Shown in pieces: positions 40,865 through 43,765 of a DNA stretch of 64,000 bases. Made by a program: the position numbers and the translations under genes. The stretch spans positions 62,001 through 126,000 of the forward strand of contig JANVFP010000010.1 in assembly GCA_027919835.1 (NCBI GenBank), written 5' to 3'. The notes under the pieces are model-generated. The model saw only the letters and a program-made list of their open reading frames with translations. It did not search any database and was not told where the DNA came from. The stretch is from Lentinula raphanica. Its lineage: Eukaryota > Basidiomycota > Agaricomycetes > Agaricales > Omphalotaceae. Each line of letters begins with the position of its first letter. Position 1 is the first letter of the stretch.

Positions 40865-40950
40865 TTAAAGCTCGAAGAGGCCGTATGTGAGACGATAATT
40901 TTATGAAAGAGAATGCGAAATGAACGATGAAAATGTATAAATACTGGAGG
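40865..40950. repeat. Partial extra copy of paralogue 3' flank (R0)
   Basis: About 85 bp starting at agctcgaagaggccgtatg and running through gtataaatactggagg. It is similar to the start of the R1 (40978) and R2 (42798) repeats but more diverged. It lies directly next to R1, so the array has three copies of this short segment. Confidence 0.6.
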
Positions 40951-40977
40951 ACAAAGTAGAAAACGTGTGCTACCCAA

Positions 40978-41142
40978 GCTTGAAGAGGCTGTATGTGAGA
41001 CGATAGCTTTAAAAAGAGAACGGAACGGCGAAACTGTATGAATGCTACTCAATGTGAAGGATGTCCATGAGATTCCGAAGATCCCGTTAGACTGGCCGCA
41101 AGCCTTTGGCCTGGACGCGCGATTGCTCGTGGCGAACCGAGG
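40978..41142. repeat. 3' flank repeat R1 of secreted paralogue A
   Basis: Starts gcttgaagaggctgtatgtg and runs up to the stop codon of gene A. Shares long near-identical blocks with R2 (for example gaaggatgtccatgaga, agactggcc and ggacgcgcg). It marks one end of the duplicated unit. Confidence 0.8.
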
Positions 41143-42205
41143 TTAATGCCCTTCAACGAGGGGCTTCGGTCGATGTACCGGGTCAGGAATAACGTTCGAC
41201 GACTCCAGCTTGGTCTTCTTCGCTGCCAGTGGCCTCTTGGGGCTTTGAGACCCTTCCCTAACTCTCTTCTTCCCTTGCTGAATGTTCTGGCTTGGTATGC
41301 TTTCCTTGTCCCTCCACCGAAACCCATTTATAACTTCCGCACTAACAGTCCCCCTCAAACTTTTAAAGACGAAGCTGAACGTGGTCTCGTCACCTCCTTC
41401 CGGAAAGTCATTCTTGAAATCGAGATATGCACGCTTGAAAGGGGAAAATTCGCTCAAGAAGATTCCGTGGCTGCCAGGGTTAGCATCAGGGTTTTTCTTG
41501 TATTCTTCTGGGATAACGTCTTCTACAAGCTGTTTGACACCATCTGGTACGTGCGGTGTTCGACCTTCTGGGGCTCCTCTGCGGACTCCATCAACGATGA
41601 AGTAAGCTGGGTAAACCACCAAGCTAGAGACAAAATCTTCGGAATACTCTGCGTCGTAGAGCCCAGCTATCCAATGCTCATTGATCTGGACATGAAATAA
41701 GTCGCCTCGGATGTTGACGAGCATATTAGAACCGCCTTTCGGGAGAGATTTGAGATCGTATGGGAAATCGTTCTTATACTCCAACTCGAGCTCGGACGAG
41801 GATCGCAGGAAAGTTTTCAGGAGGGTCTGAAGAGCGAGTTTGATTTCAGCAGGAACATAGGGAACATAGACGGAATTTGGAGCAGGATCATGGAACTTTT
41901 CCTTGTCGGGATTGATCTTGGGCGCATTTTCGTTCATGTCATTATTATTCCAGACTTGGAAAGTCACTTCGACCATCGGGGGTGGGGTTTTACGTGCTCG
42001 GAGTTTGGGCAGAATCGGGTCCATCGACCGCTCCATCAAACTGGCTTCTGAGTATGAGCTATTGAGTACGGAGGGGAATATCTGGGGAAGCAAAACGTGA
42101 GTATACAACCTGTGTTAGGTATACACTAGCGGAGTCACGCACAGCGAGAGGACACGCCAGCACATAGGGTGTCTCAATGAGGAGTGGCAGTAGCAAGCCA
42201 AACAT
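41143..42205 (-). CDS. Secreted protein of unknown family, long paralogue A
   Basis: Two exons: 42143-42205 and 41143-42081, joined by a 61-nt intron (GTGCGT..CCCCAG, phase 0). Exon 1 encodes a signal peptide, MFGLLLPLLIETPYVLA, with a small-residue cleavage context before CPLA. The mature protein (about 315 residues) begins IFPSVLNSSYSEASLMERSM. It contains two related modules of about 90-100 residues. Module 1 has YVPYVPAEIKLALQTLLKTF and LELEYKNDFPYDLKSLP. Module 2 has PHVPDGVKQLVEDVI, AYLDFKNDFP and FKSLRGTVSAEVINGF. The C-terminus is strongly basic (GKKRVREGSQSPKRPLAAKK) and resembles a bipartite nuclear localisation signal. No known family is recognised. Gene B downstream of it on the + map is a recent tandem copy. 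Confidence 0.8.
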
Positions 42206-43023
42206 CCTTCCGAACGGGGGCATTGTTGAACGTTATTGACTCTTCCAACGTATGGGTGAATAGCAAGTAGACTAGGTGTCGATGGCAGGGCGAAAGTAGA
42301 ATGAATAGACGAGGAATTCCTCCCTGTAAGTATACATTTCAATAGCGTAACACCCGCAGACTCTATCATGATGAAGTTGAGACCATCATCTGTAGTAGCC
42401 GGGATCCATCAGGATCCATCGGATGATACATACAGATGAGGGTTTTTATTCTTACCTCGACACTGGGACGAAGATCAGCACGTACTAAGGCTGAGGGGCG
42501 GGTTTGTCAAACAATCATACCACTGGTCTCCCGAGTCAGACTCGTAGCCTCTCGTAGCTCCAGGATGCAGGAGGGTCCGAGCTGCTCTCAATCTAGACAA
42601 TCTTGCTGAACAATCCAGACTTTCCAAGCTTTGAATGTTCTGGTGGCGAAACCAAAATTTCTATCGATGATATCACACATATAGATCGCGAACGCATCAA
42701 AAGGCAGCAGGCTAAATTAAAAGCGAAGAAGAAAGCCACTATATAGAGGAGGCTCCAAAGAGAAGCAGAAAGATAGAGCCACTACTACCCAAGCAGACTC
42801 AAGCTTGAAGAGGCTGTATGACATATGTGGAACGACAGCTTTAGAAAAGAGAACGCGAAAGGAACGGCGAAACTGTATAAATACTACTCAACCTGAAGGA
42901 TGTCCATGAGACTCCAAAGATCCCGTCAGACTGGCCACAAGCATTGGACCAGGACGCGCGTTTGCTCATGGTAGAGATCGAACCGAAGTTAATTCCCGCC
43001 AATGAGCTTCGGTCGATCTAGGA
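42206..43023. other. Spacer between the secreted paralogues
   Basis: About 820 bp. The first 230 bp (to about 42440) are the upstream region of gene A and resemble the upstream region of gene B (shared catgatgaag, atcggatgat and cagatgaggg). The middle (about 42440-42780) has no counterpart around gene B; it includes a short Lys-rich open frame at about 42597-42742. The last part is the R2 repeat. Confidence 0.5.
42798..43023. repeat. 3' flank repeat R2 of secreted paralogue B
   Basis: Starts caagcttgaagaggctgtatg and runs to the stop codon of gene B. It aligns with R1 over its whole length with scattered substitutions and small insertions. The pair shows that the duplicated unit included the 3' flank, not only the coding region. 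Confidence 0.8.
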
Positions 43024-43765
43024 TCAACCGTGACGCTCCGTATTGATCTTCTTCGCTGACCTCTCGGGGCTTTGAGACCCTCCCCTAAATCTCTTCTTCC
43101 CTTTCTGAATGTTCTGGATCGGTATCCACCGAATCCCATTTACTATGAAGTGAGCTGGGTAAACCACCAAGCTGGAGACGGACTCTCCCGAGAAATAGTC
43201 TGCGTCGTAGATCCCAGCTATCCAATGCTCATTGATCTGGACATGGTATGAGTCGCCTCCGATATCGACGAGCATATTAGAACCGCCTTTCGGGAGAGAT
43301 TTGAGATCGTATGGGAAATCGTTCTTATACTCCAACTCGAGCTCGGACGAGGATCGCAGAAAAGTTTTCAGGAGGGTCTGAAGAGCGAGTTTGATTTCAG
43401 CAGGAACATAGGGAACATAGACGGAATTTGGAGCAGAATCATGGGGCTCTTTCCTGTTGGGATTGATCTTGGACGCATCTTTAGTGTCCCCGGACTCCTG
43501 ATCCCAGTCTTGGAAAGACACTTTGACCGTCGGGGGTGGGGAAGTACGTGCTCGGAGTTTGGGCAGAAGAGTCGCGTCCATCGACCGCTCCATCAGACTG
43601 GCTTCTGAGTATGAGCTATTGAGTGCGGAGGGGAACATCTGGAGAAGTAAAAGATGAGCCTAAAACGTTTGGATATATCCTGGAGGAATCACACACAATG
43701 AGGGGACACGCCAGCGCATAAGGTGTCACAGCAATGCCAAAGAGCAGGAGCAAGCGAGTTTTCAT
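43024..43765 (-). CDS. Secreted protein of unknown family, short paralogue B
   Basis: Two exons: 43697-43765 and 43024-43638, with a 58-nt phase-0 intron (GTGTGT..TCCAG) at the same position as in gene A. The signal peptide is MKTRLLLLFGIAVTPYALA, followed by CPLI. Total about 227 residues against 333 in A. The block from APNSVYVPYVPAEIKLALQT through LPKGGSNMLV is almost identical to A. The protein then jumps from YPAHFIVNG to IRWIPIQNIQKGKKRFRGGS, omitting the second module of A with no frame change. The basic tail is degenerate (SPERSAKKINTERHG). It appears functional rather than a pseudogene: intact frame, intron and signal peptide. Confidence 0.78.

What the first reader, a model, noticed from the sequence alone, without database searches (positions are those of the whole stretch)
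41143..43765. Tandem pair of secreted proteins with no recognised family
Two neighbouring minus-strand genes (333 and 227 residues) each have a signal-peptide exon, a phase-0 intron at the same place and nearly identical central blocks. I recognise no domain in them. They sit in the only repeat-rich stretch of an otherwise housekeeping region, which suggests a young, lineage-specific secreted family.
Basis: partly seen in the sequence, partly recalled or inferred. Interest (0 to 1): 0.75.

Follow-up and report, generated by a model that had tools for sequence, protein, structure and literature searches.

The report
Fast-diverging secreted protein pair, Lentinula mushroom
Two neighbouring genes in a wood-rotting mushroom related to shiitake appear to make secreted proteins of a family found so far in that species only, whose bodies differ strongly between strains while their export signals stay nearly the same; what they do outside the cell is not known.

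Summary
Two tandem minus-strand genes, A (227 aa, 43765-43024) and B (339 aa, 42223-41143), each have a signal-peptide-like exon, a phase-0 intron (58 and 61 nt) and a shared body. The window is Lentinula raphanica (contig length equals that of deposited protein P0002). No Pfam, PDB-sequence or convincing fold match was found. Three searches of 5.8 billion proteins gave 10 relatives, all L. raphanica. Two distant paralogs elsewhere in the genome (C8, C19) keep the same exon layout.

New here: (1) B is predicted to hold two domains of the same beta-alpha-beta-beta-beta order; A lacks 85 residues, most of the second, that its EV360 counterpart has. (2) Signal exons follow locus and are conserved between strains (19-22 of 23; 21-26 of 27), whereas domain 1 falls to 45-61% identity between sequence classes. 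Between two of these strains the C19 paralog is 97.8% identical. (3) A and B look like old duplicates homogenised by conversion, not a young pair. (4) The deposited gene model fuses A and B through a 1,551-nt gap without GT-AG sites.

Best reading: a lineage-specific, fast-diverging secreted protein acting in interactions with other organisms. The function is inferred.

The parts
43697..43765 (-). Gene A exon 1: signal peptide (23 residues, A-type MKTRLLLL...ALACPLI)
   Evidence: others (P0003; P0005; P0004) of 23 positions identical in other strains
43639..43696 (-). Gene A intron, 58 nt, phase 0, GT..AG
43024..43638 (-). Gene A exon 2 (single-domain body and short basic tail)
43140..43141 (-). 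Gene A junction (residues 189/190) where 85 residues (190-274) of its EV360 counterpart P0003 are missing
   Evidence: alignment
42143..42223 (-). Gene B exon 1: signal peptide (27 residues, B-type MPPFGRMFGLLL...VLACPLA)
   Evidence: 23, 26 and 21 of 27 identical in P0001, P0006 and P0007
42082..42142 (-). Gene B intron, 61 nt, phase 0, GT..AG
41143..42081 (-). Gene B exon 2 (two-domain body and basic tail, stop included)
41587..41877 (-). Gene B domain 1 (residues 96-192, carries YKNDFPY)
   Evidence: predicted helix and strands; homologous block in the relatives
41323..41586 (-). Gene B domain 2 (residues 193-280, carries FKNDFP)
   Evidence: predicted helix and strands; repeat test (weak for B itself)
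41146..41322 (-). Gene B basic, predicted-disordered tail (residues 281-339, net charge +8, KRVR and KKTK)
   Evidence: pLDDT under 50 over exon-2 residues 255-312; charge and motifs
41588..42176 (.). B copy of the duplicated body (partner 43136-43730)
   Evidence: 86% over 598 columns
43136..43730 (.). A copy of the duplicated body (partner 41588-42176)
   Evidence: 86% over 598 columns
40972..41298 (.). B copy of duplicated tail and 3' flank (partner 42797-43125)
   Evidence: 78% over 348 columns
42797..43125 (.). A copy of duplicated tail and 3' flank (partner 40972-41298)
   Evidence: 78% over 348 columns

Best explanation
A and B are two old tandem copies of a Lentinula-specific secreted protein. 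The signal exon sends the protein into the secretory pathway. The mature protein is one (A) or two (B) small beta-alpha-beta-beta-beta domains with a net acidic body, followed by a disordered basic tail. Most likely it works outside the cell as a binding or antagonism protein towards other organisms in wood (competing fungi, bacteria, grazers). The partner-facing body diverges quickly between strains and is shuffled between the two neighbouring genes by gene conversion, while the signal exons and probably the promoters stay locus-specific. Shown: gene structure by comparison, taxonomic limit within the searches made, predicted repeat of element order, loss of most of domain 2 in A, strain divergence of bodies against conserved signal exons. 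Inferred: gene conversion as the process, actual secretion, the extracellular binding or antagonism role.
For: Signal exon plus phase-0 intron shared by A, B and two distant paralogs and by deposited models in other strains. All 10 database relatives are L. raphanica. Domain-1 identity is 44.9-61.1% over the 27 between-class pairs and 85.6-100% over the 9 within-class pairs (classes drawn by me from the identities), while signal exons keep 19-22 of 23 or 21-26 of 27 across classes. Control between the same two strains: C19 paralog 264 of 270 aligned residues identical in strain F5878 (one 6-residue gap), against 54 of 89 for domain 1 of P0008 of that strain versus A. Between A and B, codons 28-95 have Ka 0.22 and Ks 0.03, codons 96-150 Ks 0.05, the signal exon Ks 0.8. 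P0004 pairs an A-type signal exon (9 A-like, 2 B-like diagnostic sites) with a B-type start of exon 2 (0 A-like, 4 B-like). Sequon at N30 or N34 in all 8 of A, B, P0001 and P0003-P0007; in those 8 the body net charge is -7 to -16 and the tail +2 to +8.
Against: No expression, secretome or functional data. Mean pLDDT is 63 from a 12-row alignment. The Ka/Ks excess is post hoc (one of 7 regions printed; Fisher p 0.019 uncorrected for it, 0.15 for codons 96-150, 1.0 for the whole) and rests on 68 codons. Differences there sit mostly at first codon positions (20, 8, 4), which is odd for selection on the sense frame alone and is what an antisense frame in register would show. One of the gaps in the deposited model P0002 (41295-41348) reads GTATGC..CTAACAG on the plus strand, so the transcript evidence behind that model, if any, may be antisense. 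Strain alleles were compared as proteins only; that P0004-P0008 lie at the same locus is inferred from signal-exon type and equal contig lengths, not from flanking DNA. Bodies are not homogenised in FB446 (P0005 to P0007 42 of 89).
Confidence: 0.5

Rival explanations
1. Extracellular recognition or self/non-self system: the discrete, strongly diverged classes are balanced alleles, and the protein body is the recognition surface between individuals of the same species.
For: Classes are shared by several strains (A locus: A and P0003 in one class; P0004, P0005 and P0008 in another) and differ by about 40% in domain 1, while the C19 paralog differs by 2% between two of these strains.
Against: No mating-type gene among the 20 ORFs scanned, of which only 10 matched any Pfam family. 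No known allorecognition domain. Few alleles, proteins only; population structure or strong directional selection could look the same.
Confidence: 0.08
2. Nuclear-acting secreted protein: the basic tail is a nuclear localisation signal used in a target cell, or in the mushroom itself after retro-transport.
For: Basic K-K/R-x-K/R motifs in the tails of all 8 of A, B, P0001 and P0003-P0007, although the tails diverge otherwise. That such motifs can be nuclear signals is recalled.
Against: Absent from the C8 paralog (P0009); A and P0003 have only KRFR. Short basic motifs are common by chance and also serve as dibasic processing sites or anionic-polymer binding.
Confidence: 0.12
3. Structural or matrix protein of the fungal wall or fruiting body that tolerates fast drift, with no antagonism.
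For: Signal exon, glycosylation sequon, basic tail suited to anionic polymers; low constraint would also give Ka/Ks near 1 over the whole A/B comparison (Ka 0.162, Ks 0.162).
Against: The signal exon and the NDFP motif stay conserved while other parts of the domains diverge, and frames stay open across divergent classes (P0008's N-terminus excepted), so the genes are not simply unconstrained. The C19 paralog is slow.
Confidence: 0.2
4. The locus is one gene, as in the deposited model P0002 (A's 5' part spliced to B's 3' part).
For: P0002 (319 aa) exists in the databases on a contig of exactly this length.
Against: The join is a 1,551-nt gap equal to the repeat spacing D1, with 15 equivalent placements, none GT-AG on either strand. 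The second gap (54 nt, 3 placements) is not GT-AG on the gene's strand; one placement is GT-AG on the plus strand. Strain EV360 has both genes as separate deposited models on contigs of one length (P0001, P0003).
Confidence: 0.04

Closest known systems
Lineage-specific secreted orphan proteins (SSP / candidate-effector class) of Agaricomycetes (class features recalled)
   Same: Signal-like exon, no Pfam domain, narrow taxonomic range, tandem duplicates, strain variability.
   Different: At 227 and 339 aa larger than the usual SSP, poor in cysteine (one Cys each in A and B, next to the likely cleavage site; 1 to 3 in P0001 and P0003-P0007), two-domain body, and signal exon better conserved than the body. 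The species is a wood saprotroph (recalled).
C8 paralog, C8R42DRAFT_719129 (P0009), same genome
   Same: Signal exon plus 58-nt phase-0 intron, same order of predicted elements twice, FQNDFPY motif.
   Different: 25-27% identical to B, no basic tail motif, no detectable sequence repeat. Its 90% cluster has 4 member sequences, which suggests conservation, though the strains behind them are not known.
C19 paralog (L014; P0010 in strain F5878)
   Same: Signal exon plus 73-nt phase-0 intron, two repeats with F.NDYP.
   Different: Nearly invariant between two strains (264 of 270); no such basic tail; the C-terminal part of the P0010 model differs.
ATP synthase delta/OSCP C-terminal domain (best VIA-align row, 7p2y_d)
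   Different: Within the range the tool calls a common arrangement; 12% identity; Foldseek's own best PDB E-value is 0.28, for another chain. No relationship claimed.

Membership tests
Lineage-specific secreted orphan protein (SSP / candidate effector class) | N-terminal signal peptide | tested here: inconclusive
   Hydrophobic N-terminus and A-x-A-like cleavage site by inspection; best 12-residue hydropathy near the N-terminus 2.0-2.7 in A, B, C8 and C19, in B at residues 21-32, overlapping exon 2; SignalP not available.
Lineage-specific secreted orphan protein (SSP / candidate effector class) | No match to a known domain family | tested here: met
   0 Pfam families at E up to 10 for A and B exon 2 and for 5 relatives.
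Lineage-specific secreted orphan protein (SSP / candidate effector class) | Restricted to a narrow lineage | tested here: met
   10 of 10 proteins found in three searches are L. raphanica; limited to relatives sharing 5-residue words, and no positive control for other Lentinula proteomes was run.
Lineage-specific secreted orphan protein (SSP / candidate effector class) | Small and cysteine-rich | tested here: not met
   227 and 339 aa, one Cys each. Typical of many such proteins, not required of all (recalled).
Lineage-specific secreted orphan protein (SSP / candidate effector class) | Expressed in interaction with another organism | not testable with these tools
   No expression data held.
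   no rows at all at E up to 10.
Known small alpha+beta folds (OSCP, KhtT N-domain, MIF, cystatin-like) | Convincing structural match over most of a domain | tested here: inconclusive

The most novel reading that the evidence does not exclude
The A/B pair is a balanced, hypervariable extracellular recognition locus of a mushroom: conserved, locus-specific signal exons deliver exchangeable, strongly diverged bodies that are moved between the two genes by conversion, giving each strain its own combination for telling self from non-self or for matching changing antagonists, with a protein domain not seen outside the species.
Probability: 0.1. Interest if true: 0.8.

Novelty: new member of a known kind. 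Interest (0 to 1): 0.4.

Why it matters
Taxonomically restricted secreted proteins are common and mostly unstudied in saprotrophic mushrooms (recalled). This pair is a compact, testable case. It has a conserved address label, a body whose first domain differs by about 40-55% between sequence classes within one species, a slow paralog as a built-in control, and a natural variant that has lost most of one of two domains. If the divergence reflects balancing or diversifying selection, it points to what these fungi compete over or recognise.

Tried and rejected
Known family: Pfam, NCBIfam (0 families for 4 of 5 proteins; two sub-cut-off rows for P0010) and PDB sequences (none; one row at E 0.77, taken as chance) gave nothing usable. 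Fold search with the B model: PDB, VIA-align and BFVD gave no significant match; the proteasome subunits that fill much of the top of the PDB list (TM about 0.1) are taken as noise. The VIA list mainly covers model residues 34-157, so domain 2 is barely tested.

C1 hit (L013, E 0.2) rejected: it lies in a 922-residue open frame of unrelated-looking sequence. Antisense genes considered: long in-register antisense ORFs run opposite exon 2 of A and B and the C8 gene. Rarity of TTA, CTA and TCA codons is the plain explanation (A 4 of 228, B 4 of 340, C8 2 of 285, C19 7 of 303). The sense frame is the one conserved with its exon structure across paralogs. An antisense transcript is not excluded: see the plus-strand GT-AG reading of the 54-nt gap and the codon-position pattern.

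Repeat test of domain 1 against domain 2 within one protein, 7 of the 10 two-part proteins tested, shuffles reaching the score out of 2000: C19 0, P0003 9, P0006 15, B 42, P0004 76, P0007 138, P0009 1430. So the internal duplication is clear by sequence only in C19, suggestive in P0003 and P0006, weak in B, P0004 and P0007, absent in P0009. Profile comparison of the two halves gave probability 21.6% (E 0.001) over 11 columns. For the others the repeat rests on predicted element order.

The second structure model (P0009, mean pLDDT 47.9) is too weak for a fold search and was not searched; its alignment also held A and B, so it is not independent. P0008 has a different reading frame at its N-terminus (frameshift or annotation error, unresolved) and was dropped from statements about signal exons and tails. 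P0002 was dropped from the strain comparison because it is a fused model. Paper searches (listings with starts of abstracts seen, no paper opened) showed nothing on this family; I make no claim beyond those searches.

Full report
What is there. Two minus-strand genes lie in tandem at 43765-43024 (A) and 42223-41143 (B). Each starts with a short exon coding a hydrophobic signal-like sequence, followed by a phase-0 intron of 58 nt (A) or 61 nt (B) and one long exon. The best stretch shared by the bodies is 288 nt at 94% within 598 columns at 86%; tails and 3' flanks match at 78%. All 6 direct-repeat families of 40 nt or more found in the 64 kb are pieces of these two genes and their 3' flanks. 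Of 20 other ORFs that I chose from the window, 10 matched a Pfam family: ribosomal protein L5 and an MMR_HSR1 GTPase next to the pair, and COX16, VID27, RNB, NSUN2 pre-PUA, CrcB, WD40, a short LRR match and a sub-cut-off Rpr2 match further off.

Where it is from. The window lies in contig C10, 1,487,339 bases, of a 49-Mb genome. The deposited Lentinula raphanica protein P0002 comes from a contig of the same length, and the C8 paralog's P0009 from one of 1,563,550 bases, the length of C8. So the window is L. raphanica, an agaric of the shiitake genus (taxonomy).

Relatives. Three searches of 5.8 billion proteins returned 8, 8 and 2 proteins, 10 distinct, all from L. raphanica. Sensitivity is limited to proteins sharing short exact words, and I had no search left for a positive control on other Lentinula proteomes, so 'species-specific' means 'not seen elsewhere by these searches'. 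In the own genome, single-protein searches with B, C8, C19 and P0007 found A, B and two distant paralogs: C8 (30% over the match, E 3.9e-4 from B) and C19 (E 3.2e-7 from C8). One further row (C1, E 0.2) was rejected. C8 and C19 have the same build: signal-like exon, phase-0 intron (58 and 73 nt), long exon with the F.NDFPY or F.NDYPY motif. The deposited P0009 equals my spliced C8 model, and P0010 carries the same splice for C19.

The deposited gene model is probably wrong here. P0002 follows A up to about residue 83 and B from there on. None of the 15 possible placements of that join is GT-AG on either strand, and its 1,551-nt length equals the repeat spacing. A second gap of 54 nt in B has 3 placements; none is GT-AG on the gene's strand, but one (41295-41348) is GTATGC..CTAACAG on the plus strand. 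A model with such gaps looks like the trace of a transcript assembly that mixed the two copies, possibly with antisense reads (inference; no RNA data were seen). In strain EV360 the two genes stand as separate models, P0003 (A) and P0001 (B), from contigs of the same length.

A has lost most of domain 2. Compared with P0003, its EV360 counterpart, A is collinear to residue 189 and then lacks 85 residues (P0003 190-274), resuming in frame at NGIRW. The residues just before the missing segment and at its end both read I-V, so a deletion between short similar stretches is likely (inference).

Uneven divergence. Protein identities by region show signal exons grouping by locus: A to P0003, P0005 and P0004 22, 21 and 19 of 23; B to P0001, P0006 and P0007 23, 26 and 21 of 27; A to B only 11 of 23. 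Domain 1 groups otherwise: A to B 85 of 95, A to P0005 54 of 91, B to P0006 47 of 94, B to P0007 44 of 91. With four classes drawn by me from these identities, the 27 between-class pairs run from 44.9 to 61.1% and the 9 within-class pairs from 85.6 to 100%. P0005 and P0007 of strain FB446, from contigs of one length, share only 42 of 89, so homogenisation is not general. P0004 has an A-type signal exon (9 A-like, 2 B-like sites) but a B-type start of exon 2 (0 A-like, 4 B-like). Between A and B, Ks is 0.80 in the signal exon (19 synonymous sites only), 0.03 in codons 28-95, 0.05 in 96-150 and 0.28 in 151-192. This patchwork fits old duplicates with repeated conversion of exon-2 parts. As a control, strain F5878's C19 ortholog is identical to this strain's C19 at 264 of 270 aligned residues, with one 6-residue gap, while P0008 of the same strain matches A's domain 1 at 54 of 89. 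The A/B locus thus differs far more than its paralog between the same two strains. P0008's N-terminus is out of frame and was not used for the signal exon.

Selection. Ka/Ks between A and B is 1.0 overall and 6.6 in codons 28-95 (30.5 nonsynonymous against 1.5 synonymous changes; Fisher p 0.019). This region was one of 7 printed, the test is post hoc, and the changes cluster at first codon positions (20, 8, 4; chi-square against equal p 0.0015), so I treat it as a lead. First positions of the sense frame are third positions of the in-register antisense frame, so constraint on an antisense product would give the same pattern. Codons 96-150 show the reverse (Ka/Ks 0.15, Fisher p 0.15).

Surface features. 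All 8 of A, B, P0001 and P0003-P0007 keep an N-x-S/T sequon at residue 30 or 34, have an acidic body (-7 to -16) and a basic tail (+2 to +8) with at least one K-K/R-x-K/R motif. P0009 lacks the motif. The tail may bind anionic polymers, carry processing sites or act as a nuclear signal; nothing here decides.

Verdict. The reading as a lineage-specific secreted family is upheld within the limits of the searches; 'young' is not. I take the proteins to be fast-diverging extracellular binding or antagonism proteins, with moderate confidence in the setting and low confidence in the exact job.

Noticed in passing
window 43458 to 41908, and 41293-41348: The deposited protein of this locus (P0002, C8R42DRAFT_664658) is a fusion of A and B made with two gaps that are not GT-AG on the gene's strand; the public annotation probably needs splitting into two genes.
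   Followed up: yes
window 41295-41348 (+): The 54-nt gap of P0002 reads as a canonical intron on the plus strand (GTATGC..CTAACAG), a hint of a spliced antisense transcript under gene B; no RNA data were available.
   Followed up: partly
P0008 (strain F5878): The N-terminal part reads in a different frame from its relatives, either a frameshifted allele or an annotation error; described only.
   Followed up: partly
L008 4441-5265 (+), window 43252-43608 (+) and 41701-42051 (+): Long in-register antisense ORFs opposite the family's main exons; explained plainly by rare TTA, CTA and TCA codons, but between A and B the changes in codons 59-95 fall mostly on the antisense third position (17, 6, 2).
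   Followed up: partly
L014 3904-4815 (+): The C19 gene has no deposited protein from this strain among the results of the three protein searches, although strain F5878 has one (P0010, a longer model with a different C-terminus).
   Followed up: no
window 40868-41011: A 36-nt element downstream of B is repeated 108 nt away (89%) and, less well (61%), downstream of A at 42801: duplicated 3' flank.
   Followed up: no
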